This document shows, in pieces, positions 27,954-64,000 of a DNA stretch of 64,000 nucleotides. The notes beneath the pieces are model-generated. The model saw only the letters and a program-made list of their open reading frames with translations, was not told the DNA's origin and did not search any database. The DNA comes from Carposina sasakii (taxonomy: Eukaryota > Arthropoda > Insecta > Lepidoptera > Carposinidae), in contig CP053148.1 in assembly GCA_014607495.2 (NCBI GenBank), positions 10,850,001 through 10,914,000 of the forward strand, in the 5' to 3' direction. The position numbers and the translations under genes are program-made. Each line of letters starts with the position of its first letter. The stretch's first letter is position 1.

Positions 27954-28331
27954 TACAGGATGATTATTGGTCGTCAACGTTCCCGAAAACTACGGAATCA
28001 TCATCACGATCATTTTTCTCCATGGAAGCATATCTGGGAAGTATATTCCAAAATATTAGGGTCCAAAGTTGAGTAAATAGACTGCGTTTTTCTGCATAAA
28101 TGCACATTGACGCGTGTAGCAAGATTTTTTCACGATAAATAATTAATATCTGTCTATGAAAAAACTAGCATAAACACTGGACACTATAAATTTCGTCCGA
28201 TCAAATAATTAAAAATAAATTTTCAAAAAAAATTATATCGTTTCCCAGCATTTTTTTGACATAAACTTACTTTATTTGATGTATATATTAGGTACTCTTC
28301 GTTAAGGGTGGCAACGAAAAATCATTCTGTA
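27954..28331 (+). mobile_element. MITE family A, copy 2
   Basis: It starts TA-CAGGATGATTATTGGTC and ends near cattctgta. It shares the gttcccgaaaactacggaat, agactgcgtttttctgcata and actttatttgatgtata landmarks with the other three copies. Confidence 0.85.
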
Positions 28332-32395: not shown

Positions 32396-32548
32396 CGCGA
32401 GGCGCACATTCCGCCGATATTCATATCACACTGAAGTTGAATCGGAGTTACGGAGTGCGACCGTTTCTTCCGTACGTCCGTCGCGGCACCGAAGCCGGTC
32501 GGTATCCCGTGGCGTACGTCGGATACCTACTCAGAAACCTACAGTTGT
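32396..32548 (+). other. CpG-rich candidate 5' exon
   Basis: A sharp CpG-rich island (cgtacgtccgtcgcggcacc and neighbours) in AT-rich DNA ends at cctacagtt, followed by a GTAAGT donor at 32549. A TATAATT lies near 32380. It could be an untranslated first exon, but no initiator TCAGT and no partner exon were found. The overlapping open frame is arginine/serine-rich without a motif. Confidence 0.25.
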
Positions 32549-39725: not shown

Positions 39726-40357
39726 CTATTGGTTTTGAACCCTTTTTATTCACACTAACGGACTTTTTTATAGGTCCAACGTTAAAGATTGCACTTGTAC
39801 CCACCAAGGTCCAAGACCGTACTGTTCTGTTAACGGGCACATGAGGAAGATTTTTGACGGTTTTAAGGTAAATTACCATGTTCGAATCTACTAAATGTGA
39901 AAGTAGCCTTTCTTTTCTGTTACTTTTTCATAAAAATAATGGATCATGAAGGGACTTTGGGGACCCGATTATCTGGGATTGCTGAAATATAGGAGCATTA
40001 CTCGAAAAATTGCTGTTCAGGAAGTTAAATTGCCTAAGCCAAAAAATGCTTACAAACCTAAAAAGGAGATAGGTACTTTTACAAGAGAAAAGTTGTAGTA
40101 TAATTTGATGTTATGTAGTAAGTTTAAGTTAAAGTAAAGTTTAGCAAGCCAAGGTCAGTAAAAATAACGATTATTTTACTCTATATAAGAATCTTTATAA
40201 CACTATCCAGAACTGGAAAAAAATGGACGGTATAGGACGGACACCAGCAACAGGCTGGTCTTGACCCGGGGAAGGTGGGTTAGCGGAGCGGACACCTCCA
40301 TCCTGGAGCCCGTTGTTTCACGAAAGAAAAATGCCAATCCCTCCATGAAGGGGCACG

Positions 40358-40393
40358 TATATAACTGAATGGTGGGTGGGCGCGCGACTCAGT
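40358..40393 (+). promoter_or_regulatory. RNA polymerase II core promoter (TATA plus initiator)
   Basis: TATATAA at 40358-40364 is followed by the arthropod initiator TCAGT at 40389-40393. The presumed start A is at 40391, so the TATA box begins 33 bases upstream, the normal spacing. The region turns GC-rich just downstream, as expected of a 5' untranslated leader. Confidence 0.65.
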
Positions 40394-40513
40394 TGCACGG
40401 TGACCCTCACTCGCACCCGACCGGCCGCACAGCGCGGCTCCCGCGACTGCAAGACACGCTGCAACGCATGCCGCCGCACAACCACATACAAAAACAACCC
40501 CTGATTCAATGAG
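40391..40513 (+). CDS. Predicted first exon of an unidentified host gene
   Basis: The exon runs from the initiator A to a GTATGT donor at 40514. The leader is about 118 bases, GC-rich, and holds a 14-codon upstream frame (ATG 40468, TGA 40510-40512). That TGA overlaps the main ATG at 40509 as ATGA. Only ATG AG of the coding sequence lies here, so the exon ends in phase 2. Starting a gene with a tiny coding tip in exon 1 is common in insects. The next exon with matching phase and strong splice signals is 57299-57349, and joining them keeps a frame open. The ATG context (ttca before it) is only fair. Product unknown. Confidence 0.5.
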
Positions 40514-41482
40514 GTATGTTCTCTTTTTTAGCTTTGCGAAAAACATTGCGATTTTTTAGACCTGATAGTTTTCTGGTGTACGAAATATTATAGAAATCCT
40601 ATAGTTCTGAATCAACAAGTGTCCATCAAAAAGTTTTGATTGATGATCGCAAAACTTTTATTCTGGAATTTGTCACGTTATAACTGTACTATCTCTTTAA
40701 AACGTGATTTTATATCTATTATTATAGTTTATTATGAATAGATAGTTATAATGTATTCACCGAATACCTGATTACACCGTACAGCTTCCATCTCGTTATC
40801 AAAGTTAATTCATTTGGGAAATCAGAGTACATAGTAGATTATTCTGTAGAATACCTAATTCCATAAGTGAGTTTGTGCCTAATTGTTGTTTATGAATACG
40901 ATATCGCAACAGATAGTAGTATATGTAACATTGTAATTCAGTGTGCTCGAGTATGAGAAAATAAAAATACCTACTACATATTATATTAACTTGATAAGGG
41001 TCGAGTTTTAACAAATGACAAAATTAATTCTAAATTAAAACAACCGTTAAAATATAAAAGTTTGTATGTGGTTTATGTACCATAGATACTAAATGTACAA
41101 TATCTTTATTGTACCGAAGTTAATGCTTAAGTAATGGGTTCTGAGCACTCTACAGCCTTCATATCTATATATTTACATAGAGTAAAACGCTTTCGAATCG
41201 GGGTAAATCGTCAGTGATCTCATTCGGCATAACGTTCACCCGATTACACCCGGAGATCGCTTTTAGCCCTTCGCTACCCCTGCCTCTACGTCTACAGAAT
41301 GTGACCAATTTTCTTTGATCTTTTCCTATAAATAAAGTTTATATAAATCAATGTTATTTATTTATCGTTTAACAAAATAGATTTTTTTTAAATTTTCGGG
41401 ATATGGATAATTTTGAAAAGAAACTGAAAGTTTAATTAAACAAACTTGCTCTAGCGAATAGGTATTTTACGCAGCTCTAGTA

Positions 41483-41738
41483 TACAGGATGTAACAAAAG
41501 GGGTATGTTAAGCGAAAAGCTGTGTAAATAACCCTCTGAAAGGAACCTACCCACAAAATTTCAGACTCGAAATCACATGTATATTTTTCCAGATAGTATG
41601 GAGAATTTCTAAACAACTCAGGAATGTTCATACAATCTTGAAAAATAGACTAGTGATTTAAGTCTCTGGGAATAAGTTTTTTATAGTAGGCTATTAATAC
41701 AGCGTTTCGCTTAATATACATTTTTGTTACATCCTGTA
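41483..41738 (+). mobile_element. MITE family B, copy at 41.5 kb
   Basis: TA-CAGGATGTAACAAAAGGGG at the left is mirrored by catttttgttacatcctg-TA at the right. The 250-base element is one imperfect palindrome with its centre near gttcatacaatcttg. Confidence 0.9.
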
Positions 41739-42862
41739 TAAAGTAAAACCTCCGCGCAAAAACTAAAACCACTTTAATCCGCCTTGTTCTTGTGCACACA
41801 AAGTCGCGGGACAGAGTGAGTTATAATATAGTATTGTACACGTCTAAGTGTATTTGTAAATAGTGTTATGTTTCACCTCTACGAGTCGTTCTGTTTATTT
41901 ACCAATCAACGACTTGCGAATTGGTATATCCACGTCTGCGTCTTCGCTGACAGTAATTTTCCGTGTTATACATCTTTCTAAAAAAGGTATATAAATAAAC
42001 CTGTCCCTTTAAGAACATTTTCTTAAAGTCGCAGTTAAAACTAAACTGTCGGTTAACTAACATAATAATACGTGAAGCGAAAACTTTGTACCGATATTTA
42101 TAATTTACTCGAATTCATTCAGGTGACATTTGAGGAAGATATAAACCAATTTTTTTAACTCATAATTTAAAAGAAATATCCATAACTACTTATTAAATTT
42201 TATTAACTCTAATATGGTCGAAGTTCGACCACAAGACCACGAGGCGATCACTTTGTAATTCTATGTGACGTCAAAGTAATTGTATTTAAAGTCATTATTA
42301 ACTAGTATTATATATTAAGGTACGTTATTTCGTCATTTAATTTGTTAATAAATAATTGGCAGAGATAACAGTTGCCCTGTTTGTGGAAGTCATTGTGTTC
42401 ATGATCATATTATTTTATGTGTTTCGGTCATTAATCGAGATTCTATGAAGTTATTTTTTTTTTTTATATTGACTGTTTTTAACATTTGTAATATCATTTT
42501 AAGTTTTAATATTTTGCGATCCCCCCTAGCATGACCACGCATCGTGGATATCGTATCGTACGATATCGTATCGTCTCTATACAAAATTCAACATGGCGGC
42601 TATATTTATCGTATTTTGACAGGCTAAATGTCGATAAATCGGTTTATCATATTGTATTTCGCAGGTTATGCTCGGCATGCAGGTCAATGAATTAAATGAG
42701 GTAATATTGGTATATCATATCAGTATAGCATTTATAGACAATGTTACAGTAAAGAGTAGAAATGATACCATCTTCATGCATGTACCATGCATCACATATG
42801 TACTTACCGACTCTAACTTAAGCAGGGGTTCTATTATGTTTAAATGTTTGAATAAAAACATA
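41739..42862. other. Non-coding intron sequence
   Basis: It includes a compact palindrome gatatcgtatcgtacgatat (42546-42575). Nothing else is recognised. Confidence 0.4.
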
Positions 42863-43229
42863 TACAGGATGATATTTTGGTCGTCAACGTTCCCAAAAAC
42901 TACGGAATCTCCTCATCATCACGATCATTTTTCTCCATGGAAGCATACCTGGGAATTGTCTGGTTTCCAAAATATTAGGGTCCAAAGTTGAGTAAATAGA
43001 CTGCGTTTTTCTGCATAAATGCACATAGACGCGCGTAGCAAGATTTTTTTCACGAGAAATAATTAATATCTGTCTATAAAAAAAACTAGCATAAACACTA
43101 GACACTATAAATTTCGCCAGATCAAGTAATTAAAAAAAAAAACCAACATTTTTTTGGCATAAACTTACTTTATTTGATGTATAGAGTACGTACCCTTCGT
43201 TAATGGTGGCCACAAAAAAACAACCTGTA
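42863..43229 (+). mobile_element. MITE family A, copy 3
   Basis: TA-CAGGATGATATTTTGGTCG starts the copy and caacctg-TA ends it. It shares all family landmarks and is the best-preserved copy at both ends. Confidence 0.9.
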
Positions 43230-43476
43230 TGTACTACTAATAGAATACATATTCATATTTTAATAAAACAAGTCCACATTGTATGGATGAGAAGTTTCTA
43301 AACGTTCCTAATAAAGAAAACAAAATAAAAAATGAAATAGTAATGGCACTGCTATTGATAACTACTAAAATCAATAATATTTTACACCATAACGCCGGAA
43401 AGTTATGTATGACTTTAAATTTTTTTGGTCAAGTACCATCAGTTACGTTCACATAGATAGAATAAACGTCTAATTA
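43230..43476. other. Short spacer between two MITEs
   Basis: AT-rich, nothing recognised. Confidence 0.4.
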
Positions 43477-43740
43477 TACAGGATGTAACAGAAAGGATAT
43501 GTTAAGCGAAAAGCTGTATAAATAGCCCACTATAGAGAACCTATTTCCACAACTTGAAACTCAAAATCACATTTTTATTTAACAAGATTGTATGAAAATT
43601 CCTGAAATATTTAAAAATTCTCCATACTATCGGGAAAAATAAACATGTGATTTCAGATTTCAAATTTTGTGGATAGGTTCTCTATAGTGGGCTATTTACA
43701 TAGCTTTTCGCTTAACATACCCTTTTTGTGACATCCTGTA
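43477..43740 (+). mobile_element. MITE family B, copy at 43.5 kb
   Basis: TA-CAGGATGTAACA at 43477 and tgacatcctg-TA at 43740 are inverted ends. The arms (gttaagcgaaaagct... and agcttttcgcttaac) pair over about 110 bases, so the element is a long hairpin. Confidence 0.92.
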
Positions 43741-44968
43741 TATGAATTATACACTTACGTACTTACATATGTCACATGCGTAATATGTGTGTATTATAGT
43801 TGTATTAAAATCCCATTATAATACCAAGACATTTCTATACCTACCTACCTACCTACCTAACAAGAACTATGATCGGTGATGGTGCGATTTTCAGTTCTTA
43901 TAACTACAACGCGCTTTAGAAATAAACACATAGTTTTACAAAAAAAATTGATGTGTTACATTAACATTAAAAAAATAACAATTTTAGAGCGGATAGTCTG
44001 TCTGTAGTAAGTTGAATAAGACGCAAAAAGTTTAGCTGTTTATTTATCTATACCACAAAGAATTGAGCATCAAGGTCAAAAATATCATGATAATCATAAA
44101 GTTTGAAAGGTTATTGCAGTTTATTTAAATTTTACCACTTGAGATGTGAATCTCCAGCGTTCGAGCGTCATACATCAAACTAATACCTTTTCGGCCATAA
44201 AAATGGGTACATCTAGCTGTAGCAGCCACCCGGACGGCCATCATCGTAAACTCTTCGGCTGTAAAACATCCGTGTCCTGAAAGTCGAAAACACATCTGTG
44301 GGTCGCGACCGATGGAGGAAAAACCACTTTAACAAGGGTGTTATTTTAATTCCAATGAGTTAAGGACAAGGGGGTAAGAGGGTCTGCCTAATTAGATGGG
44401 TAAATGCCATAACATTTTTTTCATCTAAAAATAGCTAGATAACTTGCTCCATTAGAAAATTTAAAATCCATTTGGTGATTAGAAACCGCCAGAAATGGTT
44501 AACGAGTTAAATACTCAGTAAATACCTACCTACTTAATAAATAATGTATTTTAAAATTGATAGGGCACATATTTCCAAAATTTTCTGAGAACTTTAACTT
44601 GACGAAATGCGTCTTTCTCTACATGTTTCAGCGCTCCTCGAAAGCTACCTATATCATAAATCTCTGAAACTCTCTGGTGAAAGATCCTTGCGTTTTATTA
44701 TTTCTTCAAACTCAATGGCATTAAAGTATAATAGATAGATAGCCAGCGGCTACGAGGAAGGTATTAAGAGTTTACCTTGAAACCACTATATCTTATAAAG
44801 TAAAAATCCTCCTTTTATGGCAAAGTTCTATACCCACGCATTGTGCGAAGAATGCAAGCATCTGTCTATAACCTAGAAAGCTGCCAAGTATTTTGCTTAC
44901 AAATTAGAACAAAATTTTAAAGAGCACCTAGAGGATTTAAGGCCCTACGTTCTACTACCCAATAGGTA
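43741..44968. other. Non-coding intron sequence
   Basis: It contains a (TACC)4 run at 43842-43858. The GC-richer patch 44150-44330 has no recognised feature. Confidence 0.4.
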
Positions 44969-47623
44969 TAGGGGAAAGTGGGGTATGACGGGGAAGCGAG
45001 GTAAGATGGGGACCATAATAAAATAGATGATAGAATGTCGTCAGAAAATTTGTTATAACGCCATCTAACGGCATTTAGCAAGAGTTTTTAGTGTCACAAA
45101 CAGTTTGGTCGATAGTGTGCACGATATAATTTCGTAAGTATTTTTTTTAATTTTGAGTAGTTTTATGTAATTTTTGATGTTTACTAAGTGCGTGAATGTT
45201 CATAATGTATGGTACACAAGATGTGTGTTATATTTTTTTATTGATAGTTGCCTATTTTACTACTCTAAACTCATAAAATCGTTCCGGTTTTGTTATTTTT
45301 ATAACCTCAAAATATTTTACGCATCTTGCGAGACTACTTTGGGAAAGATGGGGTACCTACCTGAGGGCAAGACGGGGTGGTACCCCATCTTACCCGCTCA
45401 TGGGTCATTTCTTTTATTTCGATTTAGTTAAATATGATCGTCACTTTTTCATTTTTTCTTTTCATTCTTTCAAATTTCATTTTTTTTATAGATTATGGTC
45501 CGAAATTACCAAAGAAAAACTAACAGAGGAGGGTGGAGTGAAAATCAAATGAAGTTAGCTATTCAAGAGGTTTTAGAGGGAAAAAAGGGTTGTAAATTAG
45601 CTAGTAAGACTTATAATGTACCACAAACGACTCTCGAGCGCAAAGTTAATCAAGCAAGAAAAAATAAGAATAGTATACAAAATGTCAAAGTTCCCTTGGG
45701 TTCAATTTCCACTGTTTTTTCCGCAGAAGAAGAACAAGAACTTGTAACTTATTTAAAGGAAATGGAAGGAAGGTTATTTGGTTTGTCAACTTCTGAATTG
45801 CAGAAATTAGCCTATGAATTAGCAGTTCGTAACAACAAACAGCATAAATTCGATCATTTCAAGGAAAAAGCTGGCAAGGACTGGCTGCGTGGATTTCTCA
45901 ACCGCCATCCCGACTTGAGTTTGCGAAAGCCGGAAAATACATCAGCGGCTCGTGCTGCTGGGTTTAATAAAGTGTCTGTTAGTAAATTTTTCGAACTGCT
46001 AGGCAAATCACTTGATGATATACCTTTTACTCCGGACAGGATTTATAACTGTGACGAGACAGGAGTTTCGGTTGTGCCAAAATCGCGATCCAAAGTGATC
46101 GCTGCAACTGGTAAAAAGCAAGTGGGAGCTTTGACGTCGGCCGAACGAGGTACAACTATAACGATTGAAATTTGTTTCAACGCTTCAGGGACATACATTC
46201 CACCTATGTTTATTTATCCCAGAAAACGTATGAAGTCCGAATTGCTCAATGGGGCTCTACCGAACTCATGGGCTGAATGTTCAGATTCTGGGTGGATTAC
46301 TGCAGAAATTTTCTTAAGATGGTTTCAGAAGTTCATTAAACTCACCAACGCTTCTAAAACCAACCCAGTCATGCTTATTTTAGATGGTCATGCCTCTCAC
46401 ACCCAAAATTTGCAGCTAATCGATGAAGCACGTGAACATGGTGTGACAATAATATGCTTCCCACCGCACACCACGCACAAACTTCAACCAGCAGATGTTG
46501 GTTTTATGCGACCGTTGAGTATCTTTTATGATCAGGCCATAACAGCATGGTTAAGGTCAAATCCTGGGAAAGTAGTAACCCAATTTCAAGTAGCTGAACT
46601 TTTCGGGCAAGCATTCATTCGAGCAGCAACAATGCCAACTGCAATAAATGCATTTAAAGCATGTGGGATTTCGCCTTACAATGCACACATTTTTACTGAA
46701 GACGACTTTATTGCTGCAGAGGCCACCGATATCATATTGGACGCTGAAATAGAACCCGTTGCTGATATATCTTGGACACCATCGATAGCAGCAACATCAC
46801 AACCAACACCGACAGTCATACCATCAGTAATATCGTCAGCTCATGATAACCAAACTGCCACCTGCACCGCCTCAAATTCTACAACGAACACAGAAACACC
46901 TCAGCCAACTCCACAAACCTCATCTTTAGTACAGCAAACAATAGTAAATGATGCTCTGGATAATGCAGCATTTCATTTGGTTAGCCCAAAACAGTTAATG
47001 CCTTATCCACGAATAGGAAAAAGGACAAGACAAATTAGAAGAAGAGGAAAAGCGGCCATTATCACTGCTTCACCTTATAAAGCCGAGTTAGAAGAAAGAC
47101 AAAACAGTGAAAAACAGAAACCAAACAAAAAGAAATTGAAAAAAAAACAAATAAAAGAACCAAGAAAGCTGACGAAGAATCTCAGACATCAGATGATGTA
47201 TCTTACCACAGAATGTCTGTACTGTCACGGTCTATATTCCGAGTCTATTGAAGGTTGGATCACATGCCAGACTTGCGGTAAGTGGGCACATTGTGGCTGT
47301 GCAGGAGTGGAAGATAACGACGATGAAGCCGTCCATATCTGCCCTGATTGTGAAGATAAACACGATTAAATATGTCATACCCCATCTTACCCTAGGGGGT
47401 ACCCTGTCTTGCCCTATAGGTGGGGCAAGACGGTTTATTTTGTTATTTTTTTTAAGTTGATATTTCTATGAGAAGACTTTTATATTTTTGTTTTGACTGA
47501 TTATAATTAAAGAAAGAAAGACTGATAGTTTACATAATAAAAGTTCCTGATTTGTGCAATAAAAAAATAGAGGTTTTATTGATGAATTACCTTAAAGTCC
47601 CCGTCTTACCCCACCTTCCCCTA
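44969..47623 (+). mobile_element. Complete pogo-type DNA transposon
   Basis: The element 44971-47621 (2651 bases) is flanked by TA on both sides (44969-44970, 47622-47623), the Tc1/mariner/pogo target. The inverted ends are GGGGAAAGTGGGGTATGACG and, from the right, GGGGAAGGTGGGGTAAGACG, continuing to about 24 bases with two or three mismatches. Variants of TAAGATGGGG recur inside both ends (44999, 45341, 45365, 45382, 47378, 47400, 47421), probably as transposase binding sites. A 5' untranslated intron is likely (donor GTAAGT at 45134, acceptor TTTATAG at 45491). AATAAA signals occur at about 47538 and 47559. The single gene is intact. Confidence 0.92.
45495..47369 (+). CDS. pogo/Tigger-like transposase with C-terminal PHD-like finger, 624 aa
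   Basis: This is a DDE-type transposase that would bind the element's ends and move it to TA sites. Residues about 10-55 form a Pipsqueak/CENP-B-type helix-turn-helix (GGWSENQMKLAIQEVLEGK...NVPQTTL). Residues about 75-155 form the second CENP-B-like DNA-binding helix domain (DWLRGFLNRHPDLSLRKPE). The catalytic core has D187 (YNCDETGVS), D297 (LILDGHASHTQN) and D334 (QPADVGFMRP), 36 residues after the second Asp. Residues 430-490 are Ser/Thr/Pro-rich and 505-560 strongly basic, a likely nuclear signal. The end (574-619) is a C4HC3 finger with C574, C577, C591, C594, H599, C602, C616 and C619, like a PHD finger. The start Met follows an acceptor-like TTTATAG. No stop or frameshift interrupts it, so it may still be active. 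Confidence 0.93.
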   Translation: MVRNYQRKTNRGGWSENQMKLAIQEVLEGKKGCKLASKTYNVPQTTLERKVNQARKNKNSIQNVKVPLGSISTVFSAEEEQELVTYLKEMEGRLFGLSTSELQKLAYELAVRNNKQHKFDHFKEKAGKDWLRGFLNRHPDLSLRKPENTSAARAAGFNKVSVSKFFELLGKSLDDIPFTPDRIYNCDETGVSVVPKSRSKVIAATGKKQVGALTSAERGTTITIEICFNASGTYIPPMFIYPRKRMKSELLNGALPNSWAECSDSGWITAEIFLRWFQKFIKLTNASKTNPVMLILDGHASHTQNLQLIDEAREHGVTIICFPPHTTHKLQPADVGFMRPLSIFYDQAITAWLRSNPGKVVTQFQVAELFGQAFIRAATMPTAINAFKACGISPYNAHIFTEDDFIAAEATDIILDAEIEPVADISWTPSIAATSQPTPTVIPSVISSAHDNQTATCTASNSTTNTETPQPTPQTSSLVQQTIVNDALDNAAFHLVSPKQLMPYPRIGKRTRQIRRRGKAAIITASPYKAELEERQNSEKQKPNKKKLKKKQIKEPRKLTKNLRHQMMYLTTECLYCHGLYSESIEGWITCQTCGKWAHCGCAGVEDNDDEAVHICPDCEDKHD

Positions 47624-50600
47624 CCTAATTGTTAACTCTTTTATTTTTTAAAATCCTCAATATAGAATGGTGCTAAACGATATCGACAAGCTATAAAAAA
47701 CGAAAATAGATACCTACCGCGTATTTGCGTTCTTTCTTTCTAATTATTAGTACGATTCTAAGGAAGTTTACAAGTAGATAATAATAAAATGCTGTCAGGT
47801 TTTAATGTATAAGTATTTCTTACTTGGCTATGGCCTGTTACAAACCATTATTACTTACATACATTACACGTTCACAAGAGTTAGAGAGTGCGATATTATG
47901 CAAGCTTTTTACGACTCAAGGGTTACCTAATATTTACAATTCCTATGCTAGTCAGCGGGTTCTAATAATATGTTTTGGCTAGACATAAATTTTTAGATAA
48001 CAAGTTTCATTGTTCATATTATAGGTGCACAAATAAAGTTTTGTTGAAAATGGAGATGCAACTTATACAATGCCCAAGGTTGAAACGATACCTACGAGTA
48101 CGAGTAGAAAACACAATTACGAGTAGGTAAGATATCTTATGGAAAGGAATACTGTCAATTTACTACGTCTCATAAAAAAGTGTCATCTAACAAAGATTTT
48201 TATACGAAAAAAGTACAAGTTAAAACAATCGATATTTCTGACTCAATTCATTCATAAAATATATATTAATATAAATGAGCTTCTCAATTGAGCATTATTG
48301 GGTAGAGTAGTACCTAATGTTTTATAAGTGAGTATCGACGTGGGGACTGCGCAAAAAAGATGGTATATTCACTCACATGCCATTAAAAGTTGAGCTTTGA
48401 TCTCAAGTTATAAGTACTTTGAAACTAACTTCGTTAGTAACAAGAAAAATATTACCTTCTGTAAAAAAATTACAGATTACCTAACACTTATTAGCTTGTT
48501 ATAGTTGATCAATGCGATATTTTTAAAGAATTATATATTAAGTTGTTAAGAATGGCAAGTAGATACAAAAAAAATGTAAGTAAGTATTCCTATATGTAAA
48601 AGAGTACATACTTTAAATCGAGGGTAGGACGAGAGCATGTTGCAGGTAAGGAGGACATGGAAGGAAAGTAACAAGTGTCCGGCTGTATATGCTATCAAAT
48701 AATAGGTCTGAATTCTAGTGGTGCTAGAGTAACAAGATGGTATTAACTTAGCAGCCATTGGCAAGTGAAGATTATTTTTTGGCAGACTGTACTGACCTTC
48801 TTGCGGCAGCGTTACTCTTTAACTTTTTGACACACTTGCAAACAGCTTAGGTTCTCGTTACCCGCCATTAAGTTGAACCTTTAATAATAAGCGATAGTCA
48901 TAGCCTAACCTAGTTTTATGTCAGTTAGACACTTAAGATGTGCAAACTATTAATAACTTGAGCGAAATTAGTTTAAGTTTAGTCTATCGATGGCACAAGA
49001 GCTAGACACCGATACGGCCGGGAAAGCTGGAAGTGCAAACTTGTATGACACCGTTTCTCCGCTCTTACTTCCTATGAAAATGCATAATTAGTTCGATCCA
49101 TTCATTTTAGGTTTATTGGAGACTTTGTAGCTTGATATGGTTAGTTATCGGATATTAATATTTAAAATAAATTATCTTGTGAATACATTTTCATTTACAA
49201 CCGAAGAAGAATTACACCTAGTCGGTAACCCGAGAGAGAATTAATCTACAAACCTTACACAGTTTATTTTATTGTTAATAGGTAGTTAACAATCGTACCT
49301 AAAATTTTAATTATCGATTTGGTCTTAGCGCAGCGAAGACTCATATTATTAATCTAGGGATATGGTAATCAAACTTTAATGTGTTATGGAAGAAATAATT
49401 TTTTTATTTGCTATTATTTGAAATGAAATTGAATAAAAATATTTTATTGTGTACTTTTAGTATGAAAATGTATAAAATGAATGCGGAGCTATTTTCATTG
49501 TTATATATACCTATATAGTCATCTGAGTTTTAACGGACTTTTCACGGCCAAGCATCACAAGAGATAGAGATGATTTTTAGTTTAAATTTTAGTTTCCAAT
49601 AATAAATCGCGGATTAATTTATTATTGCTATTAATAAAATTTGTCAAAAGATATACCTACTTAATGAACGCGGCCCTTTATTTTTTATCAGCCCAAAATT
49701 CTGACTGTTAGTAGTAATATATTTGCATTGCCTGGAAAATGAAGCTTGGCTGAAATAGGCTAGTAATGTAAGACCTTAGATACTGGACTCTAGTTAGTAA
49801 ATAAATATTTGACTCGATTTTCATGATGCCACAACAATACTTATGATGGAAAATTCAATCATAAGTTTGGATTAGTATAGTAAACTCACACAACAGTCGT
49901 TTGAGCGTCGTAATGATTTAGGTACAGAACTATAAACTAGAAAATGTGGAATAATGTCAGTTCCAGTGAACTTCTGACACGTGTAGTGTTAATCAAGAGC
50001 CTGCTATAATAACAACGTCAACGCAACAACTTGTATTCAATTGAAACGATTATAGACATAATAATTATCGGCTTAGTGTAAGACTGGCTTCAAGCCATGG
50101 GAGTTTAGACAATGTTACAATTATGAGCGACAGCACATTTCCACCAATAGCGAAATTGGACTTCATCACTTCATTTAATGAACTCGCCAAATGACATCTT
50201 CCTATTGGAGGAACATATACTTCAAAAACCTCACTCGTGAAGTTACAATGAAACGCATATAAATGTCATTGTACTGAATTTGATGAAGACAATTCATAAT
50301 GGCGGGATTAAAAAAGGAAGTGCGTCGAGCCTAAATGAACTGTGCAGTAAAGTGCGAATTGTGTATTTCCTTGAAAAGGTGACGTGTAGTCCACTATATC
50401 TGTGTATTCTACACACACATAGTAATAGTGTACAAACAAAGGTCGGTTAACAGGTTTAGACCAAAACAGATAATGCTCATTTTGCTAATCTGCACAATCT
50501 AAGTATTATCTCTAAGTCAATACAAGCCTCCTAGGAGCATATTGCACTAGACTACTTACTACCTATCATAACACATACACAGAGTACATTGCTGCTATTT

Positions 50601-50751
50601 TAAGAGTCGTCTAGGAATTTTGGGGTCGTTCTCTCAGGTGATCAATTAGCGATTAGTTACAAATTTTTTTGGTAGAGGAAAGGGCTACATATAATGTATT
50701 TCACCGCAAATATACCAAGCAGAAAAACAGAGTTTTTCATGAAACTCAAAC
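47624..50751. other. AT-rich non-coding intron sequence
   Basis: No gene or clear element in 3.1 kb; short frames such as 48546-48764 (minus) lack motifs. Confidence 0.4.
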
Positions 50752-50971
50752 AGAACTCGGATTCGGTGGGAAAAGCTGGAAGGGAGTGGGTGTAATTTTC
50801 TTGTGAAAATCTAAATTTATTTGTAAATGGCTTGCATGTGGCTTGCATCATCAATATCATCCCTCATAAATTTAGAAATCATTTACTAAAGACAATGGCT
50901 GTATGGGCTTAGTTCCCCTTGCCTTTCCCGAAGGATAAACCTAAGCAAAAAAAAATAATCAAAGAGAACTC
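50752..50971 (+). mobile_element. SINE-like retroposon family C, internally deleted copy
   Basis: The 5' end GGATTCGGTGGGAAAAGCTG starts at 50759 and the A-rich tail ends near 50964. AGAACTC on both sides (50752-50758, 50965-50971) is the target duplication. About 200 internal bases are missing compared with copies 1 and 2. Confidence 0.8.
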
Positions 50972-53249
50972 CACTTAAAATCATTGAGAGCTAGTAGTAC
51001 GTTAAACTTCAATGCTTAAAATCAATAGAATTATGTATAACGCCTAGGTTACAGGTTTACACAATGTTACATTGTTTCGCGTTAATGTTCGTCGCTGTAA
51101 CATTCACACCAATAGCGGTGAGACTTCATCACGTGATTTGGCGAACGCGCGAAAATGGAAATATTTTGACGACGATTCGATTGAAAAATAATGTTACTAT
51201 GACTAAACCCTCTAACCTGTGATGTACTAAATTACTCTAGTCACAGACACTTGACGACGATTACGAGAATGTACCGGTTATTTAATTGTTTTGATCTTCG
51301 GTCATTTTCATTTTGGACAAAAACAATTTTTGGTAGGATTAGGGTAATTCAATTCAATGCACTTGACCTTAGGTCACTTGAGAATGAATAATGCTAGTCG
51401 GGTCATAAATAAAAAACCCTATATAATATCCGCTATTGCAGCTAACGTCAATGGGAAACGATGTTACATTGTCTAAAAACCTATATATTTATAAAAAAAA
51501 GGTTTATTAATGTTTTTTACTAGAAGACCCTAATGGATTGATGTCGCAATAATAGTTAGGTAGCAATCTATAAAAAATTAATTTATACCTACTCATTTAC
51601 TGCGCAGATAACATGATTTGATTGAAACTAAAATTGGAAACAAAATTAAAGATAAAAAAATTGTGATCAGAGGTTTAATAAGGTTTAATAAGGATTTTCA
51701 TCTTAAAACATCGTATCCTAACGGTAGTAAAAAGTTTCTATGATTGTTAGCTATAGGCTGTTAATTAACCGCTGGTTTCTCGAACGCTAATTACTGGTAT
51801 TTTAATGGATTGTTAACGTGAATTTGCGTTGACACTTGACAAGTCTTCGAAAAACCAGCGATATTGGTACTCAGCAGAATTTATTGTGTGCGTTCCCATT
51901 GAGGGTCCACATTGGAGTTCAGAGCTTTTGAATGCATCAAACTTTAGTAAAAGTTCTCAAACAATTGTAAATTCAACCATTAATTTGTAAAAGTTGGCAC
52001 CTAAAAGTTACATTCGGTTAAATGTGGACCCTCAGTCGTGACTGCCAGGTAACCATATCTTGCAATGTAGTTAAAATTTTGAACTCCTGTAAATTACTAC
52101 TCTTAGTAAAAGATTTGTAAAACTAATTCTATACTATATCACCCCTTTTTGTCCACTCAATAATAATATATTGCAGTTAGAAATTTGTTGCTATAATATA
52201 GAATTGAGTCCACTGACTTGTAAAAGCGATGAAAATTTTGTGAAAAATATTTTATAACTCAGTTTTTAACAATTTTCTTATAATTAGTTCTAAAATATTA
52301 TGCCTAAAACATTTCATTAAAGCTTATCTATTGAGACAGTTTTCTGATTCAATAATTTTGTGGCGAATATTTCAATAAGCAATTCAGAAATTTCAATTAT
52401 TAATTTTAATAATTAATAATTTAAAATAATTAATTTTTGTAAAAGTAGCTACCTACAATCATACAATCGAATGGGGTAGATTATATAAAATTATAATATA
52501 ATTTTATATTATATTTATATATTTATATATTATATATTTTTATAAATTTATTATATTTATTATAATTTTATTTATTTATTTCTTTTATTATAAAGAAACG
52601 ATGAATTTAGGGCGGGTTTTTTCAATTCTATTTGATGGATAAATTTTCTGCTGGCTTAATCAAGTTTAAGACAAGAGAAAGACAACATTCAGTTACTATC
52701 TGTCTATTGCCCTTAGTTGAAGTGAACATACATACATATATATTTGGATGGTAGCCCGTTATGCATAATATAAAGTATAAATAATACCTACCTACTCGTA
52801 CTAAATCCATATCCAAAATTGCCATCCATGCGTAAAATGCAAATCCATTGAAATTAAATTACTTTTATTACTTTAAAATACAGTGATATAAACTGAAAAT
52901 GCTCTTAGGTTTACGCGGCCACAATAAAATTATTGTTGACTATTATCATTCTCATAAATAAATAATTTCACAGTATAAAAATTCTTTGAATAAATATTTT
53001 TATCACATTCCTTAAAACAATGATATTTATTATCACATAAGTATTATTATTGCATCCTGTCATAAAAATCAGCAAGATAATGATCACCATCAATATTATC
53101 ATTTCATCTACTTACGGTAATCGTACTCGTATAGGCACCTAAACCTAAAGGAAGCTCTTCATTTCCGATAAAGACTTTACTAGCATATGTACCTAGTGGT
53201 CTAAATTTATATCGGTTTACTACTACCTTGCTTTTACTTGAGGTTTTAC
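50972..53249. other. AT-rich non-coding intron sequence
   Basis: The stretch 52380-52600 is nearly pure A/T with many small palindromes. No gene recognised. Confidence 0.4.
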
Positions 53250-53682
53250 TACTACCTTAGATTTTATTTGTTTAGTTTATCCAGAAGGAAAGCAAGGGGA
53301 ACTAAGCCCATACAGCCATTGTCTTTAGTAAATTATTTAGTAAATGATTTCTGAATTTATGATGGATGATATTGATGATGATGAATGGAAACGTCGGGAA
53401 CTACCTCAAGAATGGATGTAAAATTAGTAAAGATCAAAAACAACTTAGGTACATGAGCCCATGAAGAGATCGCATTCCGATTAAAGTTTTACTTAGCTTA
53501 CCCGCATATAAAACCATGCACACGCACTAGATTCACATCATAAGTAAATAAAATATAACTTATCTACCAGAAGACATCACTTTACGAAGACATGCAAGCC
53601 ATTTACAAATAAATGTTGATTTTCACAAGAAAATTACACCTGCTCCCTTCCAGCTTTTCCCGCCGAATCCTACTACCTTAGA
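53250..53682 (-). mobile_element. SINE-like retroposon family C, copy 4
   Basis: The element 53262-53670 is in minus orientation. A perfect 12-base duplication TACTACCTTAGA lies at 53250-53261 and 53671-53682. The constant end reads cccgccgaatcc on the plus strand. Confidence 0.9.
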
Positions 53683-53691
53683 CTTAGTTTT

Positions 53692-54027
53692 GCGGCATAG
53701 ACATATTTTTTTGTTTAGTTTATCCCGAAGGAAAGGCAAGGGGAACTAAGCCTATACAGCCATTGTCTTTTGTAAATGATTTGCAGAAACAACTTACATG
53801 AGCCCATGAAGAGATCGTATTCCGACGCAAATTTTACTCTGCTTACCTGCATATAAAACCATGCACACGCACAAGATTCACAGAACAGGTAAACAAAATA
53901 TAACTTATCTACCTGAAAACATCACTTTACGGACACATGTAAGCCATTTACAAATAAATTTTGACTTTCACAAGAAAACCACACCCGCACCCTTCCAGTT
54001 TTTCCCGCCGAATCCGCGCCATAGACA
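53692..54027 (-). mobile_element. SINE-like retroposon family C, copy 5
   Basis: The element 53704-54015 is in minus orientation with an internal deletion of about 90 bases. The target duplication GCGGCATAGACA / GCGCCATAGACA has one mismatch. It lies only about 10 bases from copy 4's right duplication, an unusually close second insertion in the same orientation. Confidence 0.88.
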
Positions 54028-56053
54028 ACGCTACCAAATAAGATAAATTTGACAAAGATTTACTAGTCCAATCTATCCAGATGATCGTTAACAAGTTCAA
54101 TAAACGTTAACCGTTAAAAACACTATACAATTAGTCCTATCTATAACAGTAAGTAAGTAGCAGCTCGCTTAATATAATGGTCTCGATAGGGCGGTACTCT
54201 CGGAGCACGATTATCATGCACCGCTATACTTACCTTGGCTACGAGGAAACTGGCGGCTAAATGAGGAAGCTCCTTATTACTGATATTTGCACATCTCTCC
54301 CACTCTAGGGCAAGTAAATGGATTACTGGATTGAGGTCCAGGTGCCTTGACGGAAGTCATATTTAACTTTGTTATAGAAATCAGAGTGCTAAAGTGCTTA
54401 GATTGGACCGGGACGGGGGATTAATGCAATTTTTTTCTTAATAAAGCCATTTGAGTTCGCGTTTCTTTATAACTTTTTGGATTTATTAGAAGCGTTTATA
54501 CCTACCTCAACGTTATTTTTGCTTATCCTTGGCCATGCAGACGTAAAATATATTAAAGATGTTAATAAAATTGCATTATCATTTCGTAATTTTGTTATGT
54601 AATTACCTATTACTCGTATGAAGTTGACAAAACATCTGACATAGTATATTGATTCTACCATTTATATGCACATATTGTTCACGAGTAGGTATTGCGTTAT
54701 TGTGCACGTCGATAATAGGTACCTTTTAAAATAATAAGCTAGTTTAAACTCTACATTTCTGAAGTTTAAACGACTATGTTTTTAGCCATAAGATAGAAAA
54801 GATGGATGAACAAATGTTTCTATTAAAAAATAATAAACCCGCCTGTATCCTGCAAGCGATCAAGGATAAACGTAAATACAATCATAAAATGTCTCCTACT
54901 TAATTGGGTACTTATGGTTTTCCTATCAAATACAAAGAAATCATGAGTCGCCTCATGAGTTTCCATGACAAAACCTGTTCTGTTGGAATCCTGTGACGGG
55001 GGCGACGTCAAAAAATAACCGGACGTGTACTAGAACATCAGGATTCATAAACAGTTTTAAACGTAGGAGCTTACGAGATGAAAGCTTATTTGACCTCAAT
55101 TTAAAAACGGTAAAGTATGGGTATATTATCTTATTCATAATTATTACTATAAAAATCGTATTAATTTTACTGTCAAAGGTCTCCTTTTCGCGAAGTTTTA
55201 TGTTTTTTTACTTATAAAATGATTAGGTGTGTATGAATATAATTTGTAACAGAAAAATGACTGGTTTTTTAGATTTAATCCATAACATTTTTGATTGATT
55301 TAGAGCACATGATAATGCTAAACCCATGCTGAATATTGCTAAAGTATTTTTATGGGGTAATTAAATGCAGTTTATTCATTAGAGTCTCATATAATTTAAT
55401 TTATGCACAAGTTTTTGCACCATTGTTTATCTATGCAAATGCTTGTCTATCTATGAAAATTCCGATATGATCTAACTTAAGAAATAGGTTTGAGTTTGTC
55501 CAATTAGTTTACTAGATATCATACTGACATTATAAATAATCAATTAAAATCTCATTAATGCTAGTGTTTACAATTTATCGTAGTTTAAATCTGTGGTATC
55601 TACTGTTTCAATAAATTTGAATATTTGTTGGTACATTACTTACTTATTTGTTAACCTATACTTTGGGGAAGTCCTTTGTAATCTGTATAACATGTAAATA
55701 TATCTGTATATTTACGTCCTTAAAGGCATTTTAATTCATTGGTTTTCCTGCTTATCAGTTCAAACGTTTAAATCAGAAGGTTTATAGATAGAAATTTGTA
55801 TTTTTTTTTATAAATAACTATAAAGTCTTTTCATTTTTCTCAACCTAACCGCCTAAATATCCTAAACTCAATACCTCGTACATTGTCGGTTTAGTTATTT
55901 TATATAGGTTCGTAAAACATTGTTCAGTAGCTAAATAAAAATAATTACGTTACCTACTTAAGACAGCAACGATTAATAAATTGATTTGACATGAATGCTA
56001 TAATAAGGTTGTAAGTCCTCTAATATACCGCATCCAAAACGTAACATACCTAA
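54028..56053. other. AT-rich non-coding intron sequence
   Basis: Nothing recognised. Confidence 0.4.
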
Positions 56054-56307
56054 CGTCTTCAGACTATTGCTGTCCATTGCTGGACGTAAGCCTCCCCCAG
56101 GACATGCCACAAGGCTACTTTTGGGGGGGTTTATGCTCATAGTTACCACGCTGGGCAGGCGGGTTGGTGACCGCAGTCTGATTTTCGGACTATGTTATCA
56201 GCACGGAAGGCGCTGCTGCCCACCTCCCGAAAACCCTTAATCGCCTCGTACCCACGGGCAGGCATGGGGTGGTACAAACTCTACTCTGCCGGCACCACGC
56301 GGCTGAC
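56054..56307 (-). repeat. LINE-tail repeat family D, copy 2
   Basis: It shares ccacgctgggcaggcgggtt, gattttcggactatgtt and ctctactctgccggcac with 24950-25197, in the same orientation. On the minus strand its end corresponds to the LINE coding tail 'EAYVQQW'. Confidence 0.72.
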
Positions 56308-56763
56308 GCCGCTATACGTATTCCACCAGCTATAGACAACAATTAGTTAGTTCCGACCATGACCAGTCATCTGCGACTGCAGCTATTGTTTCCTTATATT
56401 ATAATTAGTGGATATTGCAAAGCGACCGAAAAACACAGTTAACTCAAGGACCATGCTGACTTCCGGTTGAAAAGACAACAGCTGTCGACTTCTCGTTCTG
56501 TACCAGAAAATATATACTTTGACCTAAAGATACTATTGCATTCGAGTTTTACAATGCGTACGACCATCGCTAGCTGAAAAACTTGTAATCTCTCCTCTAC
56601 TTGTCTTTACTTAGGTATCATTTCGAATTATATTAGGTAGGTAGAGTCTAAAATTCGTGTCAATATCAAATAATTTTGTGAATTTTATAATTACATATTG
56701 CGAACTATATGCTTTTGTCCTCTAATATCACTAGTTCGGCTGTAAATCTGGTTGACCGAATTA
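56308..56763. other. Non-coding spacer
   Basis: Nothing recognised. Confidence 0.4.
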
Positions 56764-57142
56764 TACAGGATGATTTATGGTAGTCAACGGTCCCGAATAC
56801 TACGGAATATCCTCATCATCACGATCATTTTTCTCCATGGAAGTATACCTGGGAAGTGTCTGGTTCCCAAGATATTAGGGCCCAAAGTGAAGTAAATAGA
56901 CTGCATTTTTTCGCATAAATACACATAGACGCGTGTAACAATATTTTTCACGAAAAATAATTAAAATCTATAACAAAATTAACACAAATACTGGACACTA
57001 TAAATTTCGCCCGAACAAGTAATAAAAAAAAATAAAAAAAATTATATCGTTTCCCAACAATTTTTTTGGCATAAACTTTACTTACTTATTTGATTATAGA
57101 GTACGTACCCTTCGTTAAAGGTGGCAACGAAAAAATACCTTA
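56764..57142 (+). mobile_element. MITE family A, copy 4
   Basis: TA-CAGGATGATTTATGGTAG starts it; the right end has decayed to taccttata. Internal landmarks are intact. It ends only about 155 bases before the predicted exon 2. Confidence 0.85.
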
Positions 57143-57298
57143 TATATTAGGGCAACTTTTGAGTTTTTTATTACATGATGGATCCAAATTTGATGATATT
57201 TAAAATGTATTATTACAAGCTTTTTTATCTTATTCGTTCTGTATTTGTTATAAGATTATTTGTGACGTACCTACCTAATGTTATTTTTATTGTTTCAG

Positions 57299-57349
57299 TG
57301 GGGACGCAGAGTATACCCCGACAAACTTCAATATGAGGAACAACGTGAA
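57299..57349 (+). CDS. Predicted 51-base second exon of the host gene
   Basis: A near-ideal acceptor (ttatttttattgtttcag) precedes 51 bases and a perfect GTAAGT donor follows at 57350. Joined to exon 1 (ATG AG plus T), it reads MSGDAEYTPTNFNMRNNV followed by a codon split across the next junction (phase 2). A second frame (WGRRVYPDKLQYEEQRE) is also open, so the phase match with exon 1 is what selects the first. No membrane segment, signal peptide or known motif is visible in so short a piece. The remaining exons must lie beyond the window or be too short to see. I do not recognise the protein. Confidence 0.55.
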
Positions 57350-59554
57350 GTAAGTAAACTTTTTGCTCGTTATGCCAATTTATATTAAGCTTAAAAGATT
57401 CACAGAAAAAAAAACAGTTAAACCATAAGTAGTTAAATCATTTATTTTAAAATATTTGCCTGAAGAACCAAAACAATAAAGTTTGTCTTCGTTAAGTTAC
57501 ATTAAACGTACGTTATATTAATAAGTTTGGCAAATTACCGAAGTAGGTATGTCTATTAGATAATGGCCGGTTATCGAGTGCTCGCGTTTTGTATTTATGT
57601 AATAATAGGAAAGGAATTCTTAATTTTAGTTCATTATTACGTATTAGTTTGCAAATATCGTACTACATAATTTCTGATTTATGCGGTAATCTGTTATTTA
57701 ACCTGAATCTATACTTATATATCGATGGGTCTTATATATTACTGAAGATTTTGCCCATATTATCATGATCGGCTGCATGGCAACCAAAACAAAAAAATAA
57801 AAAATAATGTGGTATTTATTTCGACACGAAGTTTGTGCGTATTATATTATGAAGCCCTATTTAGATAGCTATCACCTCACCTACCACTGATTGATTTTTT
57901 GCGTCATATACTTAATTGTGACATAATACGAGTATACAAAGAGTAAGAAGTATGTACTACAAAACGAAGATGGTATAAATATTGCAATAAATAAATCTTA
58001 CTTTTAAAATAAAAACACTGCTGATGCGGGACATCACTAGTATATATCAGTTGCAATCAGCTGCATTGAGGCTGCATTTCTTTCAGAGCATGACGTAAGG
58101 AGTCGACCAAGGAATTCAGATGCGTTCTCTCAGGCAACTTGTCACTGATTTTTTTATATCCGCGGTATTCTAAACGTGAAATAATACATTTTTAAAATTT
58201 TGATTCAGCCATAAATGAGGGGTAGACTTCTGAAAATTAGTGCGAACTTGTCCTAAAATTATATGAACACAAGTACCTATATAGGTAAAGTTATACTAGT
58301 CAATCACACGTGCTTACTACTCCTTTGTACGTAATTGTAATCTACGTATAAGATACAACACAACATGGAATATGTTAAAGGTACTAATGTTTAGTGTGAT
58401 ATTAAACATTGGTCCAAACACAATAATGTTAGCGTGATTCTATCTTAAGTGTTAACAGTTCAAGCACACTTTACGTCAGTGTTTTTCACACAGTTGCGTT
58501 CCACGATATGATTTGTTCCTTGTTTTTTTGTATAGGTTTTTATAAAAATGACGTTGAACGCAATTATAATTGAGGAAAATCTTCAATTTTGTAATTTTTT
58601 ATCTTTACATAATTTGTACGTATAAAATGTGTAGTATGTGCTTTTGTATTATAGGACATTCACTGTGAAATCGGCATTTAATATTGCTTAGATATTCCCA
58701 AGAATTTAACAAATGAATCTTCTATTTCCTTCGTGATTTTATCTTAGGCATCTATCGATAAAACGTTTACGATACATAGTGAAATCTACGCAGTAAAATC
58801 ATTCCTGTCTAGTGAGTCTACCTAAGTAGTGAGTGCAGTAAATGACACCATGACCCCAAATTTCAACACTGTTGAGCTACTACAGCTCAAATGTAGTACA
58901 AGTATTTAAATTATAGTATTGTAGGATATTATTATAGTACTAGTGGACGCCTGCGACTCCGTCCGCGTGGACTACAGAAAAAACAAAATGTCAGAATTAT
59001 CCGGAATGAAAACATTTTCCCGAAATAAAAGGTAGCCTATATGTTAAGTGGGACCTGTCACAATATATTCCTGAAAACTGCATCGAAATCGGTTCAACCG
59101 TTTCTGAGATTAGCGTGCACAAGCGCACAGACAAACAGACAAAAATTCCAAAAATAATCGTTTTGGGTTCTATTGCGTTGATAAAGGTCTCCTATAATAT
59201 TTTTTCTCATATATCTTCCATGTACAGACAGCGATCCGTTACATTTTTATTATATGTATAGATAGTTAGGTATTGCAGGTATATTTCCCTTCATTTGACA
59301 TTTGGAAACTTTGGCGCAGTATGCCCGAATCTACTATTTACAGGAGGTTCAGTTCAAAGAAAAGTTTTTTTATCAAATATGGTAGACGTGGTATGATAGG
59401 TGGTAGGCGAATGGCTAGAAATATTGTATGATCTTTGCGAAAAAATCTATAACGTGAAATATAAACTTACATCACATATTGAAACACTCACATGGAGGAT
59501 GAAATATAGGTAAGTAGGTATGCAAGTTATTTTTTTTATAGTAGGTAGGCATAG
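57350..59554. other. Non-coding stretch, putative second intron
   Basis: It includes a worn repeat at 58080-58135 (gcatgacgtaaggagtcgac...gttctctcaggcaac) similar to the end of 62640-62760, and a family F repeat (listed separately). No further exon was identified. Confidence 0.35.
58938..59268 (+). repeat. Dispersed repeat family F, longest copy
   Basis: It starts ggacgcctgcgactccgtcc and runs through ggtagcctatatgttaagtg, atcgaaatcggttcaaccgt and agacaaacagacaaaaattc to a tail near atgtatagatag. Its second half is repeated in inverted orientation at 62008-62160 (ggatcgctgtctgtacatgg). Confidence 0.75.
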
Positions 59555-60680: not shown

Positions 60681-61286
60681 TGATTCACAAATACAATTCA
60701 ATAATTTAAATGAACTTTGAAATATTTTATTTCCTTTGGCATATCGTCACATTTCAAATACCGTCTCTATATTTTATAGAATATAGCTAGGTAGCTGTAG
60801 GTAAGTACCTACATCAATATTATTGAATTATGCATTATACAACTAAGTAACAGTAAGAATAGAATAGGTTTATTATTGTAAAGTTATATAAATACAGAGA
60901 TGGTTATTTACTATCTAAATTAACAGTTACTATTTGAGCTAAATAGAATAGGAAGCAAAGTTTAAACATGCTACGCATTTTTTCTCTTAAACAAATAGTT
61001 AATACACAAGTGTTATCTTCAGCAGGGTCATGAACGTTTTTTTTGCACTTTTGCCCTTGTTGATATTGAGAATAATAGCGTAATTATAAGTTAAAACTTG
61101 ATATTCATTGAAAGGGATTCCTTGTTTTAACTTTCGAAGTTAGGTACTTACGTCTTAAAAATTAATACCAAAAATGTTATGAGGAAAGAGTCAACCATCG
61201 GTTAAAACTTCTGTCATAGAGATAGTGCCGACTATGTAGTTTTCAGTTTTTAAAATGGGTTTTTCACTTTATTTACATTTAATGTA
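60681..61286. other. Non-coding spacer
   Basis: Nothing recognised. Confidence 0.4.
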
Positions 61287-61550
61287 TACAGGGTGTAACA
61301 AAAAGGGTATGTTAAGCGAAAAGCTACGTAAATAGCTCACTGTAGAGAACCTATAAATAAAATATGAGACTCGAAATCACATGTTTATTTTTCCCGATAG
61401 TATGGAGAATTTTTAAATATCTCAGGAATTTTCATACAATCTTGAAAAATAAACATGTGATTTCGAGTATCAAATTTTGTGGATAGGTTCTCTACAGTGG
61501 GCTATTTACATAGCTTTTCGCTTAACATACCCTTTTTGTTACACCCTGTA
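61287..61550 (+). mobile_element. MITE family B, best-preserved hairpin copy
   Basis: TA-CAGGGTGTAACAAAAAGGG at 61287 is mirrored almost exactly by ccctttttgttacaccctg-TA at 61550. The arms pair along about 110 bases with few mismatches around a ggaattttcatacaatcttg centre. It is the youngest-looking copy. Confidence 0.93.
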
Positions 61551-62007
61551 TATGTATGTAGGTAAGTATATGGCCATAAGAAAATACAAAGCGACACCTT
61601 CCCACAGAAATAACTATTTGACAACATTCATGCTGTTTTCAAGGCATAATTTAAAGCTCTCTTAGATAAATACCTAATGATAGGTTATGGAATATATTTC
61701 GGCATAATGACTGAACTGTAATTCAAGTAGCCTAGACAACCACGCAAGGGCTTATGAGCCTAAGTTCATTGCAATACAATGGTCGGAAACTGAGAAATAA
61801 TGGATTCATTATTATTCCTATTATGTTTTTATGTACTTGTGGACGTATCAATAGAACTAGGTAACCGTAGGTGCTAGCGTACTGAAAATGACAATTTATT
61901 ACTAAACTCGACACGCAGAAAATCGTCGAATGAAAAATATAGTACCTTAGATTGCTCTTTTCGATGGGAGGTGGTCAAAATGCTTTCTTAATGATTCTTA
62001 ATCTGTA
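61551..62007. other. Non-coding spacer
   Basis: Nothing recognised. Confidence 0.4.
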
Positions 62008-62995: not shown

Positions 62996-64000
62996 TATCA
63001 CCGCTTTAAAAAATGAAAATAAAATATATAGATAAAGCAGCCAGCGAAGCGTAAATCACACTTTGCCTTGCAATAAGCTACCTAATTTTAAATTGGCATT
63101 AGAACGCATTTTAAGGTGGACATTATAAACGTACACTACCGTTTGATCGAACATATTTTAGCATAATCAGCTCTGTCGGTTGATGAAGTGATCAAGGTCA
63201 TTCAACCTGAAGGCAAATGTCAAGCAATCGTTTGTTCCAAGCAATCGTATGTAACGGTGCTTCGTGTCCTGCTAGTCGCCTATCTGGTCCTGCCCATACC
63301 GTTACAGCTGCGCCACCACAGAGAATAAGTACTGCTCCTTAAGGGGACGGTGCGGTAGTATTGCATGTGTTTTAACGTTTATGTATCGGTTGCTAAAGTT
63401 TTTTTTTATCTGGATCTGATGCTTTATCTATTAGTTCCTATGTGTTGATTGATCTTTAAGTATCTTTCCGTAGTATATTTCCTATGTTTTGCATTAGTAG
63501 CACTTACTGTGATTGAGTACCTCCTTTCAGGGTTCGATACTAACTACGATATTATGAATTACACAAAATATAATATTGTAAAGGAGGATGCAAAACTGTG
63601 TATGGGCACAGTCCCCACCCATCAACAGACATGGCACAATTTTTAATATTATTTTGACTATGTCTTCAAAGATCTGTGGACTTTGTTTCATGTTACCTAC
63701 TCCGCATAAGTTTTATTCACTTCGGTAACTAATAACAAATAATAAGTTTACAGTACATTTTGATAGTCGAATCTGTAAACGTATAGGATTTTTAAAAAAT
63801 GCAAGATATTTCGTATGAGTTTCACATGTTTGGACCAGTTCCAAGTTTAGGTACACGTGAAAGTACATGCAGGTTTCGATTTCGAATGTGCAATAGGTAT
63901 GCGAAAGTTGATTTTATTCGTGGCTTAAAATTATACACCTAACAATAAAAGGCTCTAAGTAACAATAGCAATCGAAACCATCCACAAAACAAAGGTATAG
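62996..64000. other. Non-coding end of window
   Basis: No exon or repeat boundary is convincing. A 65-codon frame at 63449-63646 has a hydrophobic start but lacks splice or promoter support. Confidence 0.35.

What the first reader, a model, noticed from the sequence alone, without database searches (positions are those of the whole stretch)
40358..57349. A hidden host gene start: TATA plus TCAGT promoter, tiny coding tip, 16.8-kb intron and a phase-matched second exon
No long reading frame marks this gene. TATATAA and TCAGT are at the correct spacing. The first exon ends ATG AG before GTATGT. A 51-base exon with an excellent acceptor and donor restores exactly that phase and reads MSGDAEYTPTNFNMRNNV. 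Promoter, start, splice signals and phase agree independently. The upstream frame whose stop overlaps the main ATG (ATGA) could add translational control.
Basis: partly seen in the sequence, partly recalled or inferred. Interest (0 to 1): 0.8.

Follow-up and report, generated by a model that had tools for sequence, protein, structure and literature searches.

The report
Probable ordinary insect gene 5' end
This stretch probably holds the start of an ordinary insect gene, with a small GC-rich first exon and a small second exon separated by a long transposon-carrying intron, but the gene could not be identified and nothing about its layout is unusual.

Summary
The letters are as described: TATATAA 40358-40364, TCAGTT with the A at 40391, a 14-codon upstream frame whose TGA overlaps ATG 40509 (ATGA), donor GAG|GTATGT at 40514, and a 51-nt segment 57299-57349 between a good acceptor and GTAAGT. 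Several supports are weaker than claimed. TATA/initiator pairs this good occur at 19 places in the window (shuffles: mean 11.7, largest 18). Ten of those 19 have an ATG open to their best donor. Two of three frames of exon 2 are open. Best reading: an ordinary host gene 5' end with a repeat-loaded 16,785-nt first intron. No homologue of the N-terminus was found in two searches of limited reach, no convincing third exon was found before 64000, and the gene is unidentified. Translational control by the upstream frame is possible and untested.

The parts
40358..40364 (+). TATA-box-like TATATAA (GTATATAAC at 40357-40365, one mismatch to STATAWAWR)
40389..40394 (+). initiator-like TCAGTT, predicted cap site A at 40391
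   Evidence: consensus TCAKTY from passages of PMC6483594
40391..40513 (+). predicted exon 1 (123 nt), in the most GC-rich 120-nt window of the 64 kb (40366-40485, GC 0.69)
40468..40512 (+). upstream open reading frame, 14 codons plus TGA overlapping the main ATG (ATGA)
   Evidence: by inspection; both ATGs of exon 1 have a pyrimidine at -3
40509..40513 (+). proposed start ATG plus AG, 5 coding nt, before donor GTATGT (score 5.5; reached by 15 of 3736 + strand GT sites, itself included)
40514..57298 (+). proposed intron 1, 16,785 nt, with dispersed repeats and a pogo-like transposon
57275..57298 (+). branch-point-like CTAAT and pyrimidine-rich acceptor ending TTTCAG
   Evidence: 26 of 224 pyrimidine-rich YAG sites have CTRAY in range
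57299..57349 (+). proposed exon 2, 51 nt, reads GDAEYTPTNFNMRNNV in the frame offered by exon 1; GC 0.47 against 0.27 in 300-nt flanks; GC3 0.75

Best explanation
This is the 5' end of an ordinary RNA polymerase II gene of the insect host, on the + strand. Inferred: transcription starts near 40391 at a small GC-rich promoter; a 123-nt first exon, mostly 5' UTR, ends five bases into the coding sequence; a first intron of 16,785 nt, enlarged by mobile elements, is removed; exon 2 (57299-57349) continues the frame as MSGDAEYTPTNFNMRNNV, then a codon split across the next junction. The remaining exons lie beyond 64000. The upstream frame ending in ATGA may modestly limit translation by leaky scanning or termination-reinitiation. 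Shown: the sequence features and their statistics. Not shown: transcription, the junction, translation, the identity of the protein.
For: Features present as stated. Exon 1 lies in the top 120-nt GC window of 64 kb. Of 19 TATA/Inr sites, 40391 alone joins high GC (0.57 over 150 nt; the next has 0.40) with a donor score above 5; one other site, 59293, has a better donor (6.5) at GC 0.37. Exon 1's donor score is reached by 15 of 3736 + strand GT sites and exon 2's acceptor score by 31 of 3441 AG sites, each including itself. Exon 2 alone of 23 exon-like 45-60-nt structures has an open frame with GC3 of at least 0.70, in the predicted frame, hypergeometric P 0.015. At acceptor and donor scores of at least 3, the only other segment in phase is 24 nt (47396-47419), just past the transposon's right inverted repeat. 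A CTAAT lies 20 nt before the acceptor end. The intron holds a transposase and dispersed repeats; long, TE-rich introns are described in butterflies (PMC10497600, passages). First coding tips of 3-36 nt in genes with TATA and Inr are described for mosquito cuticular proteins (PMC2259329, passages).
Against: No homologue of the N-terminus: padded searches covered proteins of about 275-875 aa (2 candidates, none at E<=10) and about 86-275 aa (3 candidates, none at E<=10), in a database that does hold lepidopteran proteins. No convincing exon 3 before 64000; the one candidate at the cut-offs used is weak (63308-63349). The motif pair recurs at 19 places. GC is not unique: 10326-10445 has 0.67, and CpG o/e over 40370-40513 is 1.12 against 0.99 for the window. 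Three other pairs on + and two on - have an equal or better summed splice score. The ATG has T at -3. No transcript evidence was available.
Confidence: 0.6

Rival explanations
1. Exon 2 is a real exon, but its usual partner is a different first exon, possibly in another frame (for instance WGRRVYPDKLQYEEQRE, open and phase 0 at both ends), while exon 1 at 40391 belongs to another isoform, a non-coding RNA or a different gene.
For: Frame 0 of exon 2 is also open. Another exon-like segment ending in phase 0 at a GTAAGT donor exists at about 32400-32546. Genes with long first introns often have several first exons (general knowledge, recalled).
Against: GC3 is 0.35 in frame 0 against 0.75 in the proposed frame. 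The frame 0 peptide was in the query and brought no match. The 32400-32546 peptide had no Pfam match alone or joined to frame 0, only matches at E 0.98 or worse among solved structures alone and none joined.
Confidence: 0.2
2. Chance assembly: a GC-rich stretch with motif-like letters and an unrelated splice-like pair 16.8 kb away, with no such transcript.
For: TATA/Inr pairs recur at 19 places. An equally strong phase-open exon occurs in 14 of 150 Markov sequences of the downstream region. No homologue found.
Against: Coincidence of GC contrast (1 of 150 Markov sequences, cut set after the fact), GC3 in the right frame (1 of 23), top GC window at exon 1 and a branch-point-like site.
Confidence: 0.15
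3. The two exons are spliced as proposed but ATG 40509 is not the start: both are 5' UTR, or translation starts at the ATG within exon 2 or in a later exon. (The odds given here are rough and the rivals do not exclude one another.)
For: The ATG has T at -3 and is overlapped by an upstream frame. An in-frame ATG lies in exon 2 (sequence).
Against: Codon-position GC signal across exon 2 in the ATG frame.
Confidence: 0.15

Closest known systems
Insect Pol II promoters with TATA and arthropod initiator (TCAKTY)
   Same: TATA-like box and TCAGTT at an accepted distance, GC-rich leader
   Different: TATA with a consensus Inr is said to co-occur relatively infrequently in Drosophila, and TATA promoters have G at +2 in 26% of cases (PMC6483594, passages). 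No DPE with up to two mismatches; MTE and PB only with two mismatches.
Genes with a very short first coding exon, such as Anopheles CPR cuticular protein genes (PMC2259329, passages)
   Same: TATA plus TCAGT-type Inr and a coding tip of 3-36 nt in exon 1
   Different: The N-terminus here is hydrophilic and does not look like a signal peptide (by inspection, no predictor run), so it is not a cuticular protein start.
TE-expanded long introns of butterflies (PMC10497600, passages)
   Same: Intron of 16.8 kb with repeats and a transposon
   Different: No difference noted; host order not established here

Membership tests
Protein-coding gene with TATA/Inr promoter | TATA and Inr motifs at proper spacing | tested here: met
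   the pair recurs at 19 places in the window (shuffle mean 11.7)
Protein-coding gene with TATA/Inr promoter | Mapped cap site | not testable with these tools
   no transcript data held
Spliced exon pair 40513/57299 | Donor, acceptor and branch-point-like signals | tested here: met
   (weight matrices recalled, not trained on this species)
Spliced exon pair 40513/57299 | Junction reads | not testable with these tools
   no reads held
Coding exon in the frame MSGDAEYTPTNFNMRNNV | Codon-position bias in that frame | tested here: met
   P 0.015 for 16 codons, not corrected for three frames
Coding exon in the frame MSGDAEYTPTNFNMRNNV | Homologous N-terminus in other insects | tested here: inconclusive
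   none at E<=10, two length classes only, and the word filter favours near-identical relatives
uORF-controlled translation | Upstream frame affecting initiation at the main ATG | not testable with these tools
   overlap ATGA present; effect needs a reporter or ribosome profiling

The most novel reading that the evidence does not exclude
The gene is a lineage-restricted insect gene (or isoform) whose N-terminus is absent from present protein collections, whose translation is gated by a 14-codon upstream frame with a stop-start ATGA overlap, and whose two 5' exons are kept in phase across a transposon-carrying 16.8-kb intron.
Probability: 0.12. Interest if true: 0.3.

Novelty: new member of a known kind. 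Interest (0 to 1): 0.15.

Why it matters
If true, it is a gene start that ORF-based annotation would miss, and an example of judging a tiny exon by codon-position GC contrast. The biology (TATA/Inr promoter, tiny coding tip, long repeat-rich first intron, short uORF) is standard for insects, so the wider importance is small unless the protein itself proves to be of interest.

Tried and rejected
Identity of the gene: solved-structure search of the N-terminus (0 matches), paper text search for the peptide and for six fragments (0 papers), two padded protein searches (none at E<=10), and back-translated DNA patterns in viral contigs (0) and prokaryote genome contigs (0; little chance there for an insect gene).

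Exon 3 in the window: at acceptor and donor scores of at least 2, 24-400 nt and GC3 of at least 0.5, one weak phase-compatible candidate; no terminal exon of 35 codons or more at acceptor score 2.5. Not accepted.

Upstream neighbour: exon-like segments 39774-39867 and 39952-40098 join in phase to an open frame ending in TAG at 40098, which would place another gene's 3' end about 290 nt upstream. They show no GC3 signal and no Pfam family; the solved-structure search gave two weak matches (E 0.47 and 0.61), taken as chance; the protein search of about 86-275 aa gave none at E<=10. The second acceptor is weak by inspection. Left open.

Alternative first exon at about 32400-32546: no Pfam match, three solved-structure matches at E 0.98-3.8 taken as chance, none when joined to frame 0, no paper. 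Left open.

Promoter downstream elements, +15 to +36: no DPE with up to two mismatches; MTE and PB only with two.

Background paper searches: searches found 0 papers; some searches gave listings of 2, 6 and 3 papers, of which three were opened by passage search only. None was read whole.

Correction: an earlier count said 20 TATA/Inr sites; the list holds 19 distinct initiator positions (11 on + and 8 on -), and 19 is used here.

Cut-offs were set after seeing exon 2, so their P values are optimistic. In one search, at looser scores (3.5 and 3), two phase-open exons were seen (shuffle mean 0.48).

Full report
What was checked. I read 40000-41200 and 57000-57800 and joined the two pieces. The join reads MSGDAEYTPTNFNMRNNV plus AA. 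The intron would be 16,785 nt.

Promoter against chance. The exact spaced string occurs once against 0.14 expected (13 of 100 shuffles have at least one), but its spacing was set after the fact. TATAWA with TCAGT 24-36 nt on occurs 5 times on both strands against a mean of 2.6. With the consensus forms used for Drosophila (STATAWAWR, one mismatch; TCAKTY; passages of PMC6483594), 19 distinct initiator positions qualify on both strands, against a mean of 11.7 (sd 3.3, largest 18) in 40 Markov shuffles. The total is thus above the shuffles, but most such sites must be chance and the pair does not single out 40391. What marks this site is composition: 40366-40485 is the most GC-rich 120-nt window of the 64 kb (0.69), though 10326-10445 follows at 0.67, and CpG is hardly raised (o/e 1.12 against 0.99 for the window). 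Of the 19 sites it alone joins high GC with a donor score above 5; site 59293 has a better donor (6.5) at GC 0.37. No DPE was seen with up to two mismatches; MTE and PB matched only with two.

Start codon. Ten of the 19 TATA/Inr sites have an ATG open to their best donor within 400 nt, so this element says little. Both ATGs of exon 1 have a pyrimidine at -3. Control by the upstream frame is possible and untested.

Splice signals. Three other + strand pairs and two - strand pairs have an equal or better summed score. In the 23.5 kb downstream of exon 1, one phase-open pair reaches both scores, and 14 of 150 Markov sequences have at least one; asking also for a GC contrast of 0.15 leaves 1 of 150 (that cut was set after seeing exon 2). 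A CTAAT lies 20 nt before the end of the acceptor; 26 of 224 pyrimidine-rich YAG sites have such a motif in range.

Phase. Two of three frames of exon 2 are open, and 34% of random 51-nt window segments are open in a given frame, so an open phase is worth one to two bits. A better test is codon-position composition. In the proposed frame GC at positions 1/2/3 is 0.38/0.38/0.75 (P 0.015, not corrected for three frames), against third-position values of 0.35 and 0.31 in the other frames. Of 23 exon-like structures of 45-60 nt on both strands, only this one has an open frame with GC3 of at least 0.70. At acceptor and donor scores of at least 3, the only other second exon in phase for exon 1 is 24 nt at 47396-47419, just past the transposon's right inverted repeat.

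Homology. The protein collection holds Lepidoptera and other insects. The N-terminus, in a query padded with X to pass the length filter and holding the rival frame too, gave 2 candidates and no match at E<=10 among proteins of about 275-875 aa; a second query, holding the neighbouring peptide too, gave 3 candidates and none among about 86-275 aa. Larger proteins were not searched, and the word filter favours near-identical relatives, so this is inconclusive. No solved structure and no paper text of the held library matched the peptide. No convincing third exon was found before 64000 at the cut-offs used. The window's own assembly could not be searched.

The intron. It holds a pogo-like transposase of 624 aa with DDE_1 and psq-type domains, inverted repeats 44969-44989/47374-47394 and dispersed repeats shared with other parts of the window. 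Long TE-rich introns are reported for butterflies (PMC10497600, passages). A five-base coding tip is within the 3-36 nt range given for mosquito CPR first exons (PMC2259329, passages). The arrangement is ordinary.

Verdict. Probably a genuine host gene 5' end (0.6 for promoter, junction and frame together), of a known kind, unidentified.

Noticed in passing
window 44969-47394: Apparently intact pogo-like transposon: 624-aa transposase ORF 45495-47369 between 21-nt inverted repeats (86% complementary). Named relatives are about equally similar in moths (Spodoptera litura 79%, Pectinophora 78%) and a ladybird beetle (Coccinella 81% over 97% of the query), which hints at horizontal transfer; three listed relatives carry the source name 'MFS-type transporter clz9', which does not fit their DDE domain.
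   Followed up: partly
window 39774-40098: Two exon-like segments (39774-39867 and 39952-40098) join in phase to an open frame ending in TAG about 290 nt upstream of the proposed cap site; possibly the 3' end of a neighbouring gene, unidentified.
   Followed up: partly
window 32400-32546: GC-rich exon-like segment reading RRTFRRYSYHTEVESELRSATVSSVRPSRHRSRSVSRGVRRIPTQKPTV before a GTAAGT donor; no convincing match found.
   Followed up: partly
window 10326-10445: Second most GC-rich 120-nt window of the 64 kb (0.67), with no gene recognised there.
   Followed up: no
window 21897-21970 and 22179-22252, minus strand: Two tRNA-like sequences (one called tRNA-Pro CGG), 97% alike over 75 nt, near a reverse transcriptase fragment (21048-21629) and inside a pair of inverted repeats (19621-19857/22431-22661, 94%).
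   Followed up: no
window 15402-15794, minus strand: Transposase remnant matching DDE_Tnp_1_7 (piggyBac type, label recalled).
   Followed up: no
window 56762-57147: Dispersed repeat of about 380 nt (other copies at 4626-5002, 27954-28321, 42861-43220) ending about 150 nt upstream of proposed exon 2.
   Followed up: no
window 61285-61552: Palindromic repeat of 268 nt (87% to its own reverse complement) with relatives at 5432-5692, 41481-41740 and 43475-43742, perhaps a small inverted-repeat transposon family.
   Followed up: no
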